Source: a virus | Direction: 5' to 3' (one strand) | DNA length: 35,464 nucleotides | IMG/VR virus record: IMGVR_UViG_3300035701_000141 | Coordinates: 1 to 35,464 of that record | Shown here: positions 26,304 to 34,886 of the stretch, piece by piece | How positions within the stretch are numbered: position 1 is the first letter of the stretch | How the letters are laid out: each line of letters starts with the position of its first letter | The notes under the pieces: model-generated | Seen by the model: only the letters and a program-made list of their open reading frames with translations | What the model was told of the DNA's origin: nothing | Database searches by the model: none | Position numbers and translations under genes: made by a program

Positions 26304-26917
26304 CCACGACCAGAGGAGGCCCGGTGCCCGCGAAGCTCAAGGTCGAGGTGTGGGACATCGCCCGGCCGCAGCCCTACCCGTCGAACGCGCGTGTCGTGCC
26401 CGACGAGGCGGTCAAGAAGGTCGCCGCCTCCATCCGTGCCTTCGGTTTCCGCAACCCCATCCTCGTCGACGCCGAGGACACCATCATCGCCGGGCACACG
26501 CGCCTGCTCGCCGCCGAGCGCCTCAAGCTCTCTGAGGTGCCGGTCATCGTCTGTGCCGACCTGCCGCCCGCGAAGGTGCGCGCCCTGCGCCTCGCCGACA
26601 ACCGCACGGCACAGGAAACGACGTGGGAGTACGAGCGCCTCAACGTCGAGCTGGAAGACCTCGCCCGGCTCGGCCTCGACGTGTCGCTGACCGGGTTCGA
26701 CCCCGACGAGCTGGCGGGTATCGGCTACTCGGGGGCCGACTACTCCGACCTCGACCGCGAGAGCGCCGGGCTGGCGGGCTCCGAGGAGGTCAACATCGTC
26801 ATCACCGTGCCCGAACGCTACGAAGAGGCCGTCTGCGAGTGGCTCGCGAACGGCAACACCATCACCGGGCCCGGCATGGGCCTCGGGGTTCTGGCGCGAT
26901 GCGGATTGCTCTCGTAG
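26300..26917 (+). CDS. ParB-like nuclease-domain protein
   Basis: A 205-residue protein with a ParB/Srx-fold domain at ~18-105: L-K-P-like Y-P-S-N-A-R, then I-R-A-F-G-F-R-N-P-I-L-V-D. I-I-A-G-H-T-R-L-L-A-A and L-R-L-A-D-N-R-T complete the usual signature. The C-terminal part (~120-205) is helical and ends in a region common in phage ParB-like proteins near terminase genes. ATG 26300 overlaps the previous stop; GTG 26324 after GAGGAGG is an alternative start. It may bind DNA at the packaging or modification site. Confidence 0.85.
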   Translation: MTTTRGGPVPAKLKVEVWDIARPQPYPSNARVVPDEAVKKVAASIRAFGFRNPILVDAEDTIIAGHTRLLAAERLKLSEVPVIVCADLPPAKVRALRLADNRTAQETTWEYERLNVELEDLARLGLDVSLTGFDPDELAGIGYSGADYSDLDRESAGLAGSEEVNIVITVPERYEEAVCEWLANGNTITGPGMGLGVLARCGLLS

Positions 26918-28068
26918 AGGCGACGCGCAAGCCGACCGACTACCCGGTCGCCCTGCTCAAGCTCGGTGCGTGGCGGCGCGAGTGCGGCGACGAGGTCGCG
27001 CTCTACCGCAAGGCGCTCCCGCAGGCGGGCGAGTTCGACGAGATATGGGTCAGCTCCGTGTTCACCTATGACACGCCCTACGCCGTCGGGCTCGTGACCG
27101 AGGCGAAGCGCCGCGCCCCCGTGGTCAAGGCGGGGGGCATCGCGCCCTCGCTGCTGCCGCATCACTTCGCCGGGGCCGGGGCCGAGGTGCACGTCGGGCT
27201 CGTGCCCGAGGCCGAAGACGTGACGCCCGCCTATGACCTCCTGCCCGAAGCGCCCGCCTACACGGTGACGCACGCTTCGCGCGGGTGCTGCCGGGCCTGC
27301 GGCTTCTGCATGGTCAGCCGTCTGGAGCCCGAATACAGGGACCGCGCACGCTGGCCGCTCGACCTTGTGCCCGGGGCGCGCGAGGTCATCTTCTATGACA
27401 ACAACTGGCTGGCGAAGCCGCACGCGGCGCTCGCCCGCGACGTCGAGACCATCAAGCGCCTCGCCGCCGAAGGCAGCATCGTCAGCGTCGACTTCAATCA
27501 AGCCCTCGACGCGCGCCTGATGACGGAGAAACTCGCCGACCTGCTCGCCGACCTGCCGATACGCCCGGTGCGCTTCGCCTTCGACAACATGGCGACCGAT
27601 GGCCACTATCAGCGCGCCGTGCGCTGGATGGCCGAGCGCGGGCACACGCAGTTCATGGCCCTCGTGCTCTACAACTATCTCGACACCCCGGCCGACTTCT
27701 ACTACCGGCTCAGGCAGACGGTCGAGCTGTGCGCCGAGCTGCAGGTCAGCGTCGCGAGCTTCCCGATGCCGTATCAGCCCATCCTCGAAGTCGACTCGCG
27801 GCGCGCCTACGTCGGGCGCTACTGGACGCCGCAGCAGAAGCGGGGCTTTGGCGTCATTCGCTCGGCTCACTCGGGCGCGAGCGGCGGCATCACGCCGAAG
27901 TCGAAGAGCTTCATGGCGAACCTCGAAGAGTTCGAGTTCTGGTTCGGCGCGACGCCCGAGGAGTTCGTGCGCCGCATCAGCTATCCTCGGGTGAAGGAGT
28001 GGGCGCAGCGCAAGAAGGGCGAGCTGCGCCAGATGCGTCTGGAGGCTCGTGGGAGGGTGCTGGCGTGA
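26899..28068 (+). CDS. Radical SAM enzyme with B12-binding-like N-domain
   Basis: A 389-residue enzyme. The N-terminal ~110 residues (MRIALVEATRKPTDYPVALL) look like the Rossmann-type domain found before many radical SAM cores. The core has RGC130CRAC134GFC137, the C-x3-C-x2-C cluster motif that binds a 4Fe-4S cluster and S-adenosylmethionine. Barrel segments follow: VIFYDNNW, VDFNQALDARL, RPVRFAFDN. It should carry out a radical reaction on an unknown substrate. It overlaps the ParB-like gene and the small terminase, so DNA or tRNA modification linked to packaging is one idea. ATG 26899 is chosen because homology starts there. Confidence 0.85.
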   Translation: MRIALVEATRKPTDYPVALLKLGAWRRECGDEVALYRKALPQAGEFDEIWVSSVFTYDTPYAVGLVTEAKRRAPVVKAGGIAPSLLPHHFAGAGAEVHVGLVPEAEDVTPAYDLLPEAPAYTVTHASRGCCRACGFCMVSRLEPEYRDRARWPLDLVPGAREVIFYDNNWLAKPHAALARDVETIKRLAAEGSIVSVDFNQALDARLMTEKLADLLADLPIRPVRFAFDNMATDGHYQRAVRWMAERGHTQFMALVLYNYLDTPADFYYRLRQTVELCAELQVSVASFPMPYQPILEVDSRRAYVGRYWTPQQKRGFGVIRSAHSGASGGITPKSKSFMANLEEFEFWFGATPEEFVRRISYPRVKEWAQRKKGELRQMRLEARGRVLA

Positions 28069-28532
28069 GCGCAGGCAAGAAGGCGACCAAGTCATCGCAG
28101 GCCGTCATCGCGCAGCGTGTGGAGGACATCTATGGCCTCGTCGTCGACGGTCAGCCGCTTCGCGTGATTCGCGCCTATGCCCTTGAATGTGGCTGGACGG
28201 TGCACGACGCGACCTTGCGCAGCTACATGAAGCGTGCGACGCGGCTCATCAAGGAACGCTCTGAAGCGACCTGCGAGACCGTGCGCGAGACCGCCGTCGC
28301 CCGGCTGGAGCGGCTCTATGCACAGTCCGTCCAGCGCGGCGACCGGCGCACTGCGCTCGCGGTGCAGCAAGAGATAGCCCGCCTGCACGGGCTGAACGCG
28401 CCGACGAAGTCTGAAATCACCGGGGCGGGCGGCGCGCCGCTCATCACGACCGCCGAAGAGATGGCGCGGCGCTTCGAGCAGCTCGTCGAGGCGCAGGCCG
28501 CGCGCCTGAAGGCGACACCGAAACGGCCATGA
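28065..28532 (+). CDS. terS: Small terminase subunit
   Basis: A 155-residue protein from GTG 28065, overlapping the previous stop. It has an N-terminal helix-turn-helix (~12-60, VIAQRVEDIYGLVVDGQPLR), a coiled-coil oligomerisation part (~70-110), and the C-terminal N-A-P-T-K-S-E-I-T-G-A-G-G-A-P-L, a familiar small-terminase ending. It recognises phage DNA and regulates the large subunit, encoded directly after with an ATGA overlap. Confidence 0.85.
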   Translation: MSAGKKATKSSQAVIAQRVEDIYGLVVDGQPLRVIRAYALECGWTVHDATLRSYMKRATRLIKERSEATCETVRETAVARLERLYAQSVQRGDRRTALAVQQEIARLHGLNAPTKSEITGAGGAPLITTAEEMARRFEQLVEAQAARLKATPKRP

Positions 28533-29875
28533 CGACCTGCGTTGCAGAACGGCCCGGCGAGGCCCTCGTGACGCGGCTTGCGGAGCTGCCCGACACCGAG
28601 CGTCGCGCCGTCATCGCGGCGATGACGACCGAGGAGAAAGGCCGCTACCTCTTCGCGTGGCGTGCGTGGGCCCGTCCGAGTCAGGTCGCGCCTCAGGGCG
28701 AGTGGCGGGTGTGGCTTCTGCGCAGCGGGCGTGGCTACGGCAAGACAAGGGCGGGGGCTGAATGGACACGCGAGCAGGTCGAGCAGCACGGGAAGATGCG
28801 CCTCGCGCTCGTGGCCCCGACGGCGGCCGACACGCGCGACACGATGGTCGAGGGCGAGAGTGGCATCCTCGCCGTCAGTCATCCCGACTTCCTCCCGGTC
28901 TACTACCCGTCCATGCGCCGCGTCGTGTGGCCGAACGGCGCGCAGGCTACCCTCTTCAGCGCCGACAAGCCCGACCGTCTGCGCGGCCCGCAGCACGAGG
29001 CCGCGTGGTGCGACGAGCTGGCGAGCTGGCGCTACCCTGAGGCGTGGGACATGCTGCTCTTCGGCCTGCGCCTCGGCGTCAACCCGCAGGCCGTGGTCAC
29101 GACGACGCCGCGCCCGACGCGGCTCATCAAGGGGCTCATCGCGAAGGACTCGACGGTCGAGACCCGGGGCACGACCTACGAGAACGCGGCCAACCTCGCG
29201 CCCGAGTTCTTCGCCGACATCATCGCCGCCTACGAGGGCACGAACATGGGGCGGCAGGAAATCTACGGCGACATCATCGAGGACATCGCCGGGGCGCTGT
29301 GGACGCGCTCATGGCTCGACGAGGGCCGTGTCAGCGCGGCACCCGACCTCGCCCGGGTGGTAGTCGCCATCGACCCCGCCGTGACCTCAGAACCCGGCTC
29401 AGACGAGACCGGCATCGTGGTCGTGGGCTGCGACGCCGAGAACCCGTCGAACGGCTACGTCCTCGACGACCTCTCGGGGCGCTACAAGCCCGAGGAGTGG
29501 GCACGCATCGCCATCAACGCCTATCGCAAGCACAAGGCCGACCGCATCATCGGCGAGGCCAACAACGGCGGCGACCTCATCGAAAGCGTGCTGCGCACCG
29601 TCGACCCGACCATTGCCTACCGCAAGGTGCACGCGAGCCGGGGCAAGTACGTCCGCGCCGAGCCGGTGTCGACGCTCTACCAGAAGGGGCGCATGCACCA
29701 CGTCGGCCTCTTCGGCCCGCTCGAAGACCAGATGTGCAACTTCACGCCCGACATAGACCGCCGCGTCATGGGCTCACCCGACCGCGTCGACGCGCTCGTG
29801 TGGGGGTGCTGGGCACTCATGGTGGGGCGGCGCGGCTTCGGCATCCCGGCGGCCATCGGCCGCAACGCCGCGTGA
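28529..29875 (+). CDS. terL: Large terminase subunit (ATPase-nuclease)
   Basis: A 448-residue packaging motor. Walker A is R-S-G-R-G-Y-G-K-T at ~64-72, and Walker B/catalytic E lies in A-A-W-C-D-E-L at ~157-163. The RNase H-like nuclease has A-I-D-P-A-V at ~281, G-E-A-N-N-G-G-D at ~341 and P-D-R-V-D-A-L-V-W at ~413. Length is normal for the family. It pumps DNA into the prohead through the portal and cuts it. The start overlaps the small terminase stop, and the portal follows after 30 nt. Confidence 0.95.
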   Translation: MTTCVAERPGEALVTRLAELPDTERRAVIAAMTTEEKGRYLFAWRAWARPSQVAPQGEWRVWLLRSGRGYGKTRAGAEWTREQVEQHGKMRLALVAPTAADTRDTMVEGESGILAVSHPDFLPVYYPSMRRVVWPNGAQATLFSADKPDRLRGPQHEAAWCDELASWRYPEAWDMLLFGLRLGVNPQAVVTTTPRPTRLIKGLIAKDSTVETRGTTYENAANLAPEFFADIIAAYEGTNMGRQEIYGDIIEDIAGALWTRSWLDEGRVSAAPDLARVVVAIDPAVTSEPGSDETGIVVVGCDAENPSNGYVLDDLSGRYKPEEWARIAINAYRKHKADRIIGEANNGGDLIESVLRTVDPTIAYRKVHASRGKYVRAEPVSTLYQKGRMHHVGLFGPLEDQMCNFTPDIDRRVMGSPDRVDALVWGCWALMVGRRGFGIPAAIGRNAA

Positions 29876-29905
29876 TACTGTGACAGCGTCGACCGAGGAG
29901 GCAAC

Positions 29906-31339
29906 GTGGCGGCCCTGAAGACGGACATCGAAAGGGCTTACGATGCCCTCGCTGAGAAGAAGGCACGGTACGACGTGCTCTTCGCCTACTACGATGGAAA
30001 CCACCCGCTCGTCTACTCGACCGAACACCTCTCCGACCTCTTCCGCAAGATTGAGGCGAGGTGGGTGCAGAACTGGTGCAGCGTGGTCGTCGACTCGGCG
30101 CTGGAGCGGCTCACCTTCAAGGGCTTCGAGGTCGACAAGAGGGCGGGGGGCTCGGCGGCGGCGAGCGACAAGCTGACCGAGCTAGGCTCGGCGACGGACC
30201 TCGAAATCGAGTTCTACGATGCGCACAAGGACGCCCTCATCACGGGCGAGGGCTTCCTGCTCGCGTGGCCCGACGAGGAGGGCGGTTTCGACCTCTACGC
30301 GAACGACCCGCGCCTCGTGCATTGCTTCTACGAGACCGAGCGCCCGAAGGACATCGAGTTCGCGGCCAAGTGGTGGCGCGTCCCCGGCGCGACGCTGATG
30401 AACCTCTACTACCCAGACCGCATCGAGCATTGGATGGGGCCGAAGAACCCACGCTCGGGCAAGTCGTTCGTTCCGCGCGAGAAGGGCACCACCGACGACC
30501 GGGGTGAGGAGGTCGAGGCCGAGGCCAGCGAGGACAACCCGTATGGCCGCGTGCCCGTCTTCCACCTGCGCACCTCGCGGCGCGGCCCCGGCGGCGAGCT
30601 GCGCAAGCTCATCAGCGCGCAGGACGCGGTCAACAAGCTGCTCGCCGACATGATGGTCGCCTCCGAGTTCGGCAGCTTCCCGCAGCGGTACATCATCACC
30701 GAGCAGGACACCTCGAAGCTCAAGATTGGCCCCGGCCAGCTCTGGGCCTTCAGGCCCGCCGACGAAGGCGTGCAGCCGACGTCGGCCGGGACGTTCCCGC
30801 CCGTCGACGTCGACCAGTACCTCGGCGCGATGGACAAGCTGGCGTCCTCCATCGCCATCGTGTCGCGCACGCCAAAGCACTACTTCTTCGCGCAGGGCGG
30901 CGACCCCTCGGGCGAGGCGCTCATCGCGATGGAGGCTCCGCTCGTGAAGAAGTGCGAGCACTACAGCGAGCTGTTCGGTCAGGTGTGGCGCGAGCTGGGC
31001 GTCTTCATGCTGGAGGCGCTCGGCGTCAAGGTCGACCCCGGCGCGGTGAGCGCGACGTGGGACGCGATGCAGACGCAGCAGCCCATCTCGACGACGACCG
31101 CGCTGGTCAACTACGTCAAGGCGACCATGCCGCTCGTGACCGCCCTGCGTGAACTTGGCTGGGGGCCCGACGAGCTGCAACAGATGGAAGACGACAAGGC
31201 GAGCGAGCCCACGCCGCCGACCTTCACGTCAGCGATGCAGGGCTTCAACCAAGGTGTGCCGGGGGCGTACCCCTCGCCGCCGGGCCCGACCCCTTCACCG
31301 GCCGCGACCCCCGGCACGCCGCAGCCGAAAGGAGCCTGA
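29906..31339 (+). CDS. Portal protein (SPP1 gp6-like)
   Basis: A 477-residue protein of the SPP1 gp6-like portal family. It has an N-terminal helix with Y-D-G-N-H-P, then N-W-C-S-V-V-V-D-S-A-L-E-R-L and W-x-x-N, all typical. The crown/clip area has D-A-V-N-K-L-L-A-D-M-M-V, and P-K-H-Y-F-F-A-Q-G-G-D-P-S-G-E-A-L is the diagnostic conserved stretch. The C-terminus is Pro-rich. It forms the dodecameric DNA channel. GTG 29906 is chosen because GAGGAGG lies just upstream. Confidence 0.93.
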   Translation: MAALKTDIERAYDALAEKKARYDVLFAYYDGNHPLVYSTEHLSDLFRKIEARWVQNWCSVVVDSALERLTFKGFEVDKRAGGSAAASDKLTELGSATDLEIEFYDAHKDALITGEGFLLAWPDEEGGFDLYANDPRLVHCFYETERPKDIEFAAKWWRVPGATLMNLYYPDRIEHWMGPKNPRSGKSFVPREKGTTDDRGEEVEAEASEDNPYGRVPVFHLRTSRRGPGGELRKLISAQDAVNKLLADMMVASEFGSFPQRYIITEQDTSKLKIGPGQLWAFRPADEGVQPTSAGTFPPVDVDQYLGAMDKLASSIAIVSRTPKHYFFAQGGDPSGEALIAMEAPLVKKCEHYSELFGQVWRELGVFMLEALGVKVDPGAVSATWDAMQTQQPISTTTALVNYVKATMPLVTALRELGWGPDELQQMEDDKASEPTPPTFTSAMQGFNQGVPGAYPSPPGPTPSPAATPGTPQPKGA

Positions 31340-31681: not shown

Positions 31682-32806
31682 ATGGCCCTGCCCGCCGTCG
31701 TCGAGACCGAGCGCGCGTGGCGCGCCGCGCTGGCCGCGCGCGAGGAGGCGGCGATGCAGGCGATGGCCGTGCGCTACGCCGAGTTCACCGAGCGCATGAT
31801 GGCCGAGTTCGAGGCGCTCGCCGAGCAGGTGACGCGCATGGCCGCCGAGGGCGAGGTCGTGAGCATCGGCAAGGTCTACCAGCTCGAACGCTATCAGCGC
31901 ATGGCCGCGCAGATGGACCGCGCCTATGCCGAGTTCCGACCCTACGCCGCCGAGGTCATCAGCGCCGAGCAGCGGTATCTGCTCGACGCTGGCATGGACA
32001 ACGCGCGCGGCGAGCTGCGCGCCATCGGCGAGTCGAGCGTCATCGCCGACACCTTCGCGACCATGGTCGAGGGCTGGCCTGCCGGGGCGATTGACCAGAT
32101 GGTCGGCCAAACGCAGGGGGGGCCGCTTGCCGAGCTGCTCGCCGGGGCGACCACCGACGCCGAGGCCGACGTCGGGCGCTCGCTGGTCGAAGGCGTCGCG
32201 CTGGGGAAGAACCCGAGCGTCGTCGCCCGGGAGATGGCCGACAGGTTCGGGCTCCCACTGGCGCGTGCCAACTGCATCGCGCGCACCGAGATGCTGAGCG
32301 CCTTCCGCTCCTCGACGCTGGAGGGCTACCGGCAGGCCGGGGTCGAGCAGTACCAACGCCTGAGCGCGCAGGACAGCGTGGTCTGCGAGGGCTGCGCGGC
32401 GGCCGAGGGCGGGCTCTACTGGACGAATGAAGACTTCGAGGACCATCCCAACTGCCGCTGCTCGTGCATCCCCTACTACCCCGGCGCGGTGCAGTTCCCC
32501 ATGGGCGAGGATTGGTTCAACACGCTCGACGAGGGCGACCAGCGACAGATTCTCGGCCCGACGAAGTTCGATATGTGGAAGAACGGCGAGGTCAAGTTCG
32601 ACCAGTTCGCGACGCGCACCGGGAACGCGACATGGGGCGGGGCCATCGGCCCAACGTCCGTGCGCGACCTGCGCGCAGGCGGGGGCGGGCTCCCACAGCT
32701 CAGAGCGCCGACGACACCGCCCGCCCTACCGGGCGGCGTCATGGGCTCGCAGGTCGCGAGCGGCCTACCGCTGCCGGGCGGTGGAATCACGGACGCCGAG
32801 ATGTAG
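31682..32806 (+). CDS. MuF-type minor head protein (ends at amber stop)
   Basis: A 374-residue minor capsid/morphogenesis protein. The N-terminal ~130 residues are long charged helices. The Mu F-like domain follows (~170-285) with N-C-I-A-R-T-E-M-L-S-A-F, then Y-Q-R-L-S-A-Q-D-S-V-V-C-E-G-C and H-P-N-C-R-C-S. The last ~50 residues are a Pro/Gly linker. It is encoded after the portal, as usual, and binds near the portal inside the head. It ends with TAG, but the same frame stays open beyond it into a toxin-like region. See the next entries. Confidence 0.9.
   Translation: MALPAVVETERAWRAALAAREEAAMQAMAVRYAEFTERMMAEFEALAEQVTRMAAEGEVVSIGKVYQLERYQRMAAQMDRAYAEFRPYAAEVISAEQRYLLDAGMDNARGELRAIGESSVIADTFATMVEGWPAGAIDQMVGQTQGGPLAELLAGATTDAEADVGRSLVEGVALGKNPSVVAREMADRFGLPLARANCIARTEMLSAFRSSTLEGYRQAGVEQYQRLSAQDSVVCEGCAAAEGGLYWTNEDFEDHPNCRCSCIPYYPGAVQFPMGEDWFNTLDEGDQRQILGPTKFDMWKNGEVKFDQFATRTGNATWGGAIGPTSVRDLRAGGGGLPQLRAPTTPPALPGGVMGSQVASGLPLPGGGITDAEM
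32804..32806 (+). promoter_or_regulatory. In-frame amber codon between MuF and toxin region (possible readthrough)
   Basis: TAG lies in the frame that runs from 31682 to 34663 with no other stop. After it, zeta-like protein sequence starts at once, while no ATG, GTG or TTG in frame occurs before 32933. Without readthrough or an unusual start, this coding part would not be translated. Confidence 0.6.
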
Positions 32807-34663
32807 CTCGTCGCCGCCGAGCTGGACGTCGGGAGCTACGCCGGGAGCGGTTCGCTGCGCGGGCTGGTCGGCGACGATGGCACGCTCGACGCGGCGCGCG
32901 AGGCCCTGCACCGCGAGTGGCTCGGGCGCGCGGTGCCCGACTTCCTCGAAGCGCAGGAGAGGCCGCTCTGTCAGCGCCTCGGCGGGGGCTCGGCCTCGGG
33001 CAAGTCGACGATGCGCGGCAGCGGCAAGGTCGACATCATGGAACGCCGCACGGCGGCACAGATTGACGCCGACGAGTTCAAGGCGATGACCGAGGAGTAC
33101 AAGCTGCTCAGCTCGGCGAACGACCCGCTCGCTGCCTCGTTCGTGCATCAGGAGTCCTCCTACCTCGCCCGGGCGGCCGAGATAATCGCCCGCAACCGGC
33201 GGGTCAACATCGTCACCGACGGCACGAACGACGGCAGCCTCGCCCGCTGCATCAAGCAAATCGAGGCCCTGCGCGCCGACGGCTACCGCGTCGAGGGGTT
33301 CTTCAACACGGTGCCGCTCGACACGGCACTCGAATGGGCGGCGAAGCGCGCCGCCGAGGAGGGCCGTACCGTGCTGGAAGAGGTCATCCGAGCGAACCAC
33401 GCCGCCGTGTCGGCGAACTTCGAGGAGTTGGCCCCGTACTTTGACCGCCTCTTCCTCTTCGACAACTATGCCGGGGGCGAGGGCGTGTCGCTGCTCATCG
33501 CGAGCTGTGAGCGCGACGCCCTCATCGACATCATCCGGGCCGACCTCTACGATGCCTTCCTGCGCAAGAGTTCCGAGGTCGCCGCGCGCCTCGACGCGCT
33601 GCGCACCATCGAAGCGGCTGGGCGCAAGCTGGCGGCCGACGGCTTTGGGGCCGTGCGGTACGACAACCTGACCACGATGACGCCGGGCCCGGGCGGCGAG
33701 CTGGAGTCTGCCTTCGTGACCGACTTCAAGCTCTCCGACAAGCTCCACGACGTCACGACCTACCCGAACGAGGGCACGGCGCAGGCGGCGAAGCGCGAAG
33801 TGATGATGAACCTCGACGGGCGGCTCGCCGGGAACGCCGATTGGGAGAACTACGTCGCCCGGCGCGCGGGCTACGAAGGCCGAGCCGACTACCTGCAGAG
33901 CTTCCAGACCGCCTATGACATGACGCCCGCACAGGCCGAGGAATCTCTGCGCTCAATCTCGCAGACCGAGGTCAGCCGACTCGTGCAGGAGTGGGCGCAC
34001 ACGAGCGCCGACTCGAATCCTGTCTCGCTCGCCATGCAGCTCGCGGCGCGCGACGAGTTCGGTCTCGTCGACGCCGTGCTCGACCATCTCGACAAGGCCA
34101 TCCTCGACGACATCGCGCAGTACGGCACGGGCGACCTGCTCGCGCAGTCGCGCATGCCCGCCTATCAGGCTTTCCTCCGGGCGCAGTACGACGTCACGCA
34201 GGACTACCTCAAGGCGACCAACGTCGACGAGGTCGTACTCTACCGGGGGGCCGTGCTCCCGGGCGACATCTACAGCGCCGAGGCGCAGGAGGCCGCGAGC
34301 ATGCTCTGGAACGGCACCCTGCTGGACGTCGAGCTACAACCGCTGTCCTCGTTCTCAATCGACATGCAGACGGCTTTCAAGTTCGCCGACCACGGGGCGG
34401 GCGACGCGAGCACGGTCATGGTCGTGCGCGTCCCGGCCGACCGCATCCTCTCGACCTGCCGCACGGGCTACGGCTGTCTGCAGGAGGGCGAGTTCGTCAT
34501 CCTCGGCACCGAGTTCGAGGCCCCGGTCGCGTTCAAGCTGAGCGGCTCGTTCGGCGTCGTCGTGCCGCCGGGCATGAACACGGCCTCGGTCGACACCGCG
34601 AACCGCGCGTGGCTCTACTCGGGCGAGTTCGCCAAGTGGGTCGCGAGCCTCGGGGTACAATGA
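32807..34663 (+). CDS. Zeta-toxin kinase fused to ADP-ribosyltransferase (MuF-toxin C-terminal part)
   Basis: The frame is open from 32807; the first ordinary start is GTG 32933 with no ribosome site. The helix before the P-loop (DAAREALHREWLGRAV, part of the zeta fold) lies partly upstream of 32933. P-loop: L-G-G-G-S-A-S-G-K-S-T at ~32978-33010. The zeta segment N-I-V-T-D-G-T-N-D-G-S comes next. A helical spacer is followed by an R-S-E type ADP-ribosyltransferase: L-Y-R-G (Arg at 34244), L-S-S-F-S (34343-34357) and Q-E-G-E-F-V (two Glu at 34484 and 34490). It likely phosphorylates a UDP-sugar and modifies a host target with ADP-ribose. It is probably part of a MuF polymorphic toxin. Confidence 0.7.
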   Translation, partial: LVAAELDVGSYAGSGSLRGLVGDDGTLDAAREALHREWLGRAVPDFLEAQERPLCQRLGGGSASGKSTMRGSGKVDIMERRTAAQIDADEFKAMTEEYKLLSSANDPLAASFVHQESSYLARAAEIIARNRRVNIVTDGTNDGSLARCIKQIEALRADGYRVEGFFNTVPLDTALEWAAKRAAEEGRTVLEEVIRANHAAVSANFEELAPYFDRLFLFDNYAGGEGVSLLIASCERDALIDIIRADLYDAFLRKSSEVAARLDALRTIEAAGRKLAADGFGAVRYDNLTTMTPGPGGELESAFVTDFKLSDKLHDVTTYPNEGTAQAAKREVMMNLDGRLAGNADWENYVARRAGYEGRADYLQSFQTAYDMTPAQAEESLRSISQTEVSRLVQEWAHTSADSNPVSLAMQLAARDEFGLVDAVLDHLDKAILDDIAQYGTGDLLAQSRMPAYQAFLRAQYDVTQDYLKATNVDEVVLYRGAVLPGDIYSAEAQEAASMLWNGTLLDVELQPLSSFSIDMQTAFKFADHGAGDASTVMVVRVPADRILSTCRTGYGCLQEGEFVILGTEFEAPVAFKLSGSFGVVVPPGMNTASVDTANRAWLYSGEFAKWVASLGVQ

Positions 34664-34694: not shown

Positions 34695-34886
34695 ATGGTC
34701 AACTTCGATGCCGACCTGCAGAATGCCGACTGGACGAAGCAGACCCCCGACCTGCTGATGACGGGGCCCGAGCTGCGTGCCTTCCTCAAGGCGAGCGGCT
34801 CGACGGTCGCCGCCTTCAAGCGCCTCCCGGTCTACCAGCTCAACCGGGCGCACTTTGACCGCCTCCTCGCCGGGGGCGCGCCATGA
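34695..34886 (+). CDS. Small protein after toxin, immunity or head-module candidate
   Basis: A 63-residue protein from ATG 34695 after TAGGAGGAACCGCC. The start V-N-F-D-A-D-L-Q-N-A-D-W-T-K-Q-T-P-D-L and the ending with F-K-R-L-P-V-Y resemble small proteins found by capsid genes of high-GC-host siphoviruses. Its place just after a toxin also makes it an immunity candidate. The two readings cannot be separated from sequence alone. Confidence 0.7.
   Translation: MVNFDADLQNADWTKQTPDLLMTGPELRAFLKASGSTVAAFKRLPVYQLNRAHFDRLLAGGAP

What the first reader, a model, noticed from the sequence alone, without database searches (positions are those of the whole stretch)
32950..34663. Zeta P-loop kinase and R-S-E ADP-ribosyltransferase in one phage protein
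The P-loop GGGSASGKST with TDGTNDGS matches zeta/PezT-like kinases. The C-terminal R, S-S-F-S and E-x-E features match arginine-type ADP-ribosyltransferases. A two-warhead effector encoded in the head module could enter the cell with DNA, as T4 Alt does, or act against host or rival phages.
Basis: partly seen in the sequence, partly recalled or inferred. Interest (0 to 1): 0.78.

Follow-up and report, generated by a model that had tools for sequence, protein, structure and literature searches.

The report
Amber-split phage head kinase–ADP-ribosyltransferase effector
A phage known only from metagenome data carries, directly behind its minor head protein and cut off from it by a single stop codon, a two-enzyme effector (a zeta-type kinase plus an ADP-ribosyltransferase) that a related phage makes as part of the head protein itself, and it is followed by a small undescribed gene that travels with this ADP-ribosyltransferase and may protect against it.

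Summary
Observation confirmed, with corrections. The 618-codon frame holds a zeta-toxin kinase domain (Pfam 6e-20; AF2 pLDDT 88; best fold match the epsilon/zeta toxin) and a C-terminal domain with an R, S-S-F-S, E-x-E signature kept in 43 viral relatives, related to Pfam DRAT. Two things were missed. (1) The frame does not start at GTG 32933: 42 coding-like codons with an invariant Arg and a well-predicted helix precede it, back to a TAG (32804-32806). That TAG ends the MuF minor head protein, in the same frame. In the relative L007 (and Cyanophage PSS2, for MuF-zeta) there is no stop: it is one MuF-zeta-ART protein. So this is the effector half of a known kind of virion protein, split by an amber codon. 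(2) A 63-aa ORF (34695-34886) without Pfam or PHROG match belongs to a small-protein family that lies next to this ART in 31 of 43 ART loci (7 others cut off) and in no locus without it: a candidate immunity protein. Zeta and ART fusions to MuF are published; readthrough of the amber codon, a rare CTG start, or a recent nonsense mutation cannot be separated here.

The parts
31682..32806 (+). MuF minor head protein (374 aa), ends in TAG
   Evidence: Pfam Phage_Mu_F 1.1e-9; PHROG minor head / head morphogenesis families
32804..32806 (+). in-frame TAG between MuF and the effector frame
   Evidence: same in the second contig L002, identical over 5290 bases
32807..32932 (+). 42 codons after the TAG without ATG/GTG/TTG, coding-like; linker plus first helix of the kinase domain (codons 29-42 = 32891-32932)
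   Evidence: GC3 0.95, codon score +15.1, invariant R31 in 23 homologues, helix 29-42 with pLDDT about 95
32808..32877 (+). possible RNA stem-loop starting 1 nt after the TAG (9-bp perfect stem)
   Evidence: unusual against coding windows of this phage (0.5%), not unusual against dinucleotide shuffles (z -0.7)
32855..32857 (+). candidate non-standard CTG start with GGGAG 7 nt upstream (rival reading)
32933..32935 (+). first standard start codon (GTG), too far downstream: would remove the first kinase helix
32951..33436 (+). zeta-toxin-like kinase core; K66 33002-33004, D89 33071-33073, R181 33347-33349, R187 33365-33367
   Evidence: Pfam PF06414 residues 49-210
33830..34660 (+). ADP-ribosyltransferase (R-S-E) domain; R480 34244-34246, S515 34349-34351, S517 34355-34357, E560 34484-34486, E562 34490-34492
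34661..34663 (+). TGA stop of the effector frame
34695..34886 (+). 63-aa partner of the ART, candidate immunity protein
   Evidence: adjacent to the ART in 31 of 43 ART loci, absent elsewhere; no Pfam/PHROG match
28529..31339 (+). context: terminase large subunit (28529-29875) and portal (29906-31339)
   Evidence: PHROG matches

Best explanation
This is the effector half of a MuF-zeta kinase-ADP-ribosyltransferase polyvalent head protein. The MuF part places the protein at the portal/head; the two enzyme domains ride into the new host with the DNA. There the kinase would phosphorylate a nucleotide-activated sugar (UDP-GlcNAc in known zeta toxins) or another small molecule, and the ART would attach ADP-ribose from NAD to host protein, probably on arginine. 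In this phage a single in-frame amber codon lies in the linker between MuF and the effector, so most product is plain MuF and a small share of readthrough product carries the effector; this would limit dose and leave MuF for assembly. The 63-aa protein made from the next gene most likely binds and blocks the ART in the producing cell. Shown: domains, catalytic residues, ancestral in-frame fusion, coding character of the codons after the TAG, linkage of the partner to the ART. Inferred: packaging, injection, readthrough (about 0.4), substrates, immunity function (about 0.6).
For: Uninterrupted MuF-zeta-ART ORF of 1188 aa in L007, 48% identical overall; MuF-zeta in one 1499-aa 'minor head protein' of Cyanophage PSS2 with near-identical spacing; many further MuF-zeta and one portal-zeta fusion; MuF-ART fusions in L074, L216, L220, L230; the closest relative by MuF (L073, 65%) has no effector, so the effector is an exchangeable add-on. 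Same frame across the TAG, no standard start for 42 codons, coding score and homology continuous. Zeta fold: 1GVN E 5e-17 by profile, 8e-12 by Foldseek; active-site Lys, Asp and two Arg aligned with zeta and kept in all 23. ART triad invariant, DRAT above Pfam cut-off in L224 and weakly in 20 of 32. Partner gene.
Against: TAG is a normal stop in this phage (14 of 54 called genes) and no tRNA gene was found in the window, so readthrough would have to be low-level. None of about 35 other MuF genes examined has this arrangement. The post-TAG stem is not significant against shuffles. Only one genotype is known (window and the identical L002), so selection after the TAG cannot be measured. The ART fold model is weak.
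Confidence: 0.55

Rival explanations
1. The effector is a separate protein that starts at a non-standard codon (CTG 32855 or 32864) just upstream of the kinase domain and is translated on its own; it acts in the producing cell or is packaged without MuF.
For: CTG 32855 has GGGAG 7 nt upstream with predicted anti-SD pairing -7.0 kcal/mol, inside the range of real genes of this phage; the kinase fold would be complete from codon 17.
Against: CTG starts are rare in bacteria (general knowledge). The coding signal and similarity to L007 (Y..xGSL) continue upstream of codon 17.
Confidence: 0.25
2. The TAG is a recent nonsense mutation: MuF is still made, the effector is silent or on its way out, as in the effector-less relative L073.
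For: MuF-only relatives exist, so the effector is dispensable; the arrangement is seen in one genotype only.
Against: All 618 codons after the TAG are open, catalytic residues are intact and the partner gene is intact with an AGGAGG sequence before its ATG; identical in two assemblies, though these may not be independent samples.
Confidence: 0.25
3. The kinase half is a toxin-antitoxin-type zeta toxin whose small downstream ORF is its antitoxin.
For: Zeta fold and a small ORF nearby.
Against: The small ORF follows the ART, including ART proteins without any zeta domain (L074, L216, SP-15), and is absent next to zeta domains without the ART.
Confidence: 0.05
4. The C-terminal domain is not an ADP-ribosyltransferase but an unrelated enzyme with a chance R/S/E pattern.
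For: The window protein itself does not pass any Pfam ART cut-off; weak fold model.
Against: Triad invariant in 43 relatives; family members match DRAT, one above cut-off; structural neighbours led by the Vis ART, Z 5.4.
Confidence: 0.07

Closest known systems
MuF polyvalent / polymorphic effectors of phages (PMC5512222, PMC5576092, PMC9503650)
   Same: MuF head domain with C-terminal enzyme domains; zeta-like kinases and ARTs are both reported fused to MuF; head-gene neighbourhood.
   Different: Here kinase and ART stand in tandem, and an in-frame TAG lies between MuF and the effector. PMC5512222 and PMC5576092 hold no mention of readthrough or a stop codon.
Cyanophage PSS2 minor head protein (ACT65592.1)
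   Same: MuF then zeta kinase in one polypeptide with nearly the same spacing; by eye an ART-like YRG/SWS/EWE stretch further on.
   Different: One uninterrupted ORF; the C-terminal part is not detectably homologous to this ART.
Epsilon/zeta toxin (1GVN, 3Q8X) and PezT (2P5T)
   Same: Kinase fold and P-loop, catalytic Asp and two Arg.
   Different: No epsilon antitoxin recognised; has an H-x-E-S-S motif of this phage subgroup; linked to a head protein.
DRAT (dinitrogenase reductase ADP-ribosyltransferase, PF07357)
   Same: Weak but repeated sequence match over the catalytic core; arginine-specific enzyme (specificity from general knowledge).
   Different: Window protein is below the Pfam cut-off; linked to head proteins; the partner is not DraG-sized.
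Bacillus phage SP-15 gp258/gp257
   Same: ART 37% identical with all triad residues; gp257 is the small partner.
   Different: No zeta or MuF domain; partner gene lies upstream.
T4 Alt
   Same: Proposed logic: head-borne ART that acts at the start of infection.
   Different: No detectable sequence relation; different domain context.

Membership tests
Zeta-toxin kinase (PF06414) | Profile match above curated cut-off | tested here: met
   71.9 bits against 22.3
Zeta-toxin kinase (PF06414) | Walker A Lys, catalytic Asp, two substrate/phosphate Arg (K46, D67, R158, R171 of zeta) | tested here: met
   K66, D89, R181, R187, invariant in 23 homologues and aligned with 1GVN; residue roles from general knowledge
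Zeta-toxin kinase (PF06414) | Zeta fold | tested here: met
   AF2 pLDDT 87.6, pTM 0.83; Foldseek best 1GVN 8e-12
Zeta-toxin kinase (PF06414) | Phosphorylates UDP-GlcNAc | not testable with these tools
   needs an assay; other kinases of this fold use other substrates
R-S-E clade ADP-ribosyltransferase | Arg, S-x-S/T and E-x-E residues | tested here: met
   R480 43/43, S515 40/43, S517 S/T 41/43, E560/E562 42/42
R-S-E clade ADP-ribosyltransferase | ART fold | tested here: inconclusive
   model pLDDT 60; Foldseek nothing below 0.001; VIA best Z 5.4, mostly ARTs
R-S-E clade ADP-ribosyltransferase | NAD-dependent arginine modification | not testable with these tools
   needs an assay
DRAT (PF07357) | Match above curated cut-off | tested here: not met
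   window 13-16 bits against 25; relative L224 27.8 bits
MuF polyvalent effector | MuF domain next to terminase/portal | tested here: met
MuF polyvalent effector | Effector in the same polypeptide as MuF | tested here: inconclusive
   same frame but separated by TAG in the window; fused in L007
MuF polyvalent effector | Exchangeable C-terminal domain among relatives | tested here: met
   none in L073, ART only in L074, zeta-ART in L007, ADPrib_exo_Tox in L104
MuF polyvalent effector | Packaged in the virion and injected | not testable with these tools
   virion proteomics needed
Polymorphic toxin with immunity gene | Small cognate gene directly downstream | tested here: met
   31 of 43 ART loci, none elsewhere; protective function not tested
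T4 Alt | Sequence match to Alt/VIP2-type ART families | tested here: not met
   no such Pfam match at E up to 1

The most novel reading that the evidence does not exclude
The amber codon is a dosage switch: programmed readthrough of a MuF stop loads a few virion copies of MuF with a kinase-ART effector, while a dedicated small protein of a new family shields the producing cell from the ART.
Probability: 0.3. Interest if true: 0.8.

Novelty: new variant of a known kind. Interest (0 to 1): 0.6.

Why it matters
MuF-linked toxins are widely predicted but their dosing and self-protection are hardly understood. This locus gives a testable lead on both: a stop codon between the head anchor and the effector, and a small family of partner proteins that tracks one ART family across unrelated phages. 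If the partner is an immunity protein, it would also be evidence that these ARTs act in the producing host cell.

Tried and rejected
Genome-wide TAG recoding: rejected, TAG ends 14 of 54 called genes. Assembly error: not supported, L002 is identical, but independence of the two assemblies is unknown. L027 as a second MuF/stop/zeta case: it is a frame break, not an in-frame stop. Near-identical genomes with another codon at the TAG: none among viral contigs; two chance matches elsewhere. Zeta-antitoxin reading of the 63-aa ORF: rejected by linkage. Profile search of the ART against solved structures: nothing. ART search in four host genomes: nothing, uninformative. The partner profile does not find the plasmid ART loci; only by-eye likeness. 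Papers on MuF with readthrough: none relevant held. The first MuF profile used to survey loci drifted into the zeta domain, so MuF calls were filtered by the ARTE motif.

Full report
The window is a 35,464-base virus record with tail genes, recombination genes, terminase, portal and a MuF minor head gene in one direction. The finding concerns the ORF after MuF.

Observation. The ORF 32933-34663 holds the P-loop and the other motifs as read. Pfam gives Zeta_toxin at 6e-20. A profile of 23 homologues finds the epsilon/zeta toxin 1GVN at 5e-17 and PezT at 1.5e-12. The AlphaFold2 model of the kinase half is good (pLDDT 87.6) and its best Foldseek matches are 1GVN and 3Q8X, followed by AvrRxo1-ORF1 and PezT. 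The Walker Lys, the catalytic Asp and both Arg are invariant.

The C-terminal half has no Pfam match above cut-off, but it is 37% identical to gp258 of Bacillus phage SP-15, and a search with a four-sequence alignment found 43 viral loci. Across these the R, S-x-S and E-x-E residues are among the most conserved positions, with further invariant W396, F418, T464-Q465. 20 of 32 members show Pfam DRAT, best 2.3e-7, one whole protein above the curated cut-off. The fold model is weak (pLDDT 60, 4 sequences); Foldseek gives nothing significant, but the VIA list is led by the Vis ART (Z 5.4) and consists mostly of ART-fold enzymes. I take it as an R-S-E ART with confidence near 0.9.

The frame is open from 32807, right after the TAG that ends MuF, and MuF is in the same frame. 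The first standard start codon is 42 codons later. These 42 codons are coding-like (GC3 0.95; log-odds +15.1, while nearly all other pre-start stretches of the 54 called genes are negative). They encode an Arg invariant in 23 homologues and helix 29-42 of the kinase domain, predicted with pLDDT about 95. A protein starting at GTG 32933 would lack both.

Relatives explain this. L007, with a MuF 56% identical, has one uninterrupted 1188-aa MuF-zeta-ART ORF. Cyanophage PSS2 has MuF and zeta in a 1499-aa minor head protein with MuF at 154-270 and zeta at 427-597, against 164-262 and 424-585 in the window if the TAG is read as a residue. Many other viral contigs carry MuF-zeta, and one portal-zeta. 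Within the phage's own relatives the C-terminus is exchangeable: none in L073, ART without zeta in L074, zeta plus ART in L007, an ADPrib_exo_Tox ART in L104. This is the MuF polymorphic/polyvalent effector pattern described in PMC5576092, PMC5512222 (which names zeta-like kinases fused to MuF) and PMC9503650 (which names ARTs fused to MuF).

The TAG. It is identical in a second contig, L002. TAG is an ordinary stop here (14 of 54 genes). A 9-bp perfect stem begins 1 nt after it; only 0.5% of coding windows of this phage have one as long so placed, and the 80-nt fold is in the most stable 3.6%, but against dinucleotide shuffles it is unremarkable (z -0.7). A CTG at 32855 has a passable Shine-Dalgarno sequence. 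No other MuF examined has an effector frame after an in-frame stop, and no second genotype of this junction was found. So readthrough, CTG initiation and a recent nonsense mutation all remain open; I put them at about 0.4, 0.25 and 0.25.

The partner. The 63-aa ORF 34695-34886 has homologues in L007 and L074 but none in the effector-less L073. A profile built from these three and iterated over 256 fetched loci hits 31 of the 43 ART loci; seven of the 12 others are cut off at the contig end at or just after the ART (L002, L222, L235, L246, L247, L248, L252). All remaining hits are the same records fetched under other numbers; no locus without the ART has it. It lies within a few tens of bases of the end of the ART frame in nearly all cases, upstream in SP-15, and within the same frame in L234. 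It has no Pfam match above cut-off and no PHROG match. Among 50,697 phage records, searches with members of both families found only SP-15, which holds both. An immunity role is the simplest reading; a chaperone or packaging adaptor is possible.

Verdict. The protein is real and enzymatically plausible; as an architecture it is a new variant of a known kind. The amber junction and the ART partner family are the points worth following.

Noticed in passing
window 34695-34886; L216:5670-5831, L230:4517-4678, L071:5053-5214: Small-protein family (NADW-T/I-K ... WDLP ... LPVY) strictly linked to this ART family, no Pfam/PHROG match.
   Followed up: yes
L012:3790-6447: Zeta kinase fused to the C-terminus of a phage portal protein (Phage_portal_3 plus Zeta_toxin).
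   Followed up: partly
L014-L030 and similar: A recurrent MuF-zeta fusion of about 714 aa in some 20 viral contigs.
   Followed up: partly
L013, L038, L066: MuF proteins with two zeta-type kinase domains in tandem.
   Followed up: no
L076:6001-7953: MuF gene that looks interrupted by an intein inside its HPxCRC motif (by eye).
   Followed up: no
L113:2830-6099: MuF fused to several helix-turn-helix domains and an AbiEi-antitoxin-like stretch.
   Followed up: no
L258, L261 (Rhodococcus plasmids): Relatives of the ART on actinobacterial plasmids; a 70-aa ORF overlaps the ART end and resembles the partner by eye.
   Followed up: partly
window 26899-28068: Radical SAM gene directly upstream of the terminase genes.
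   Followed up: no
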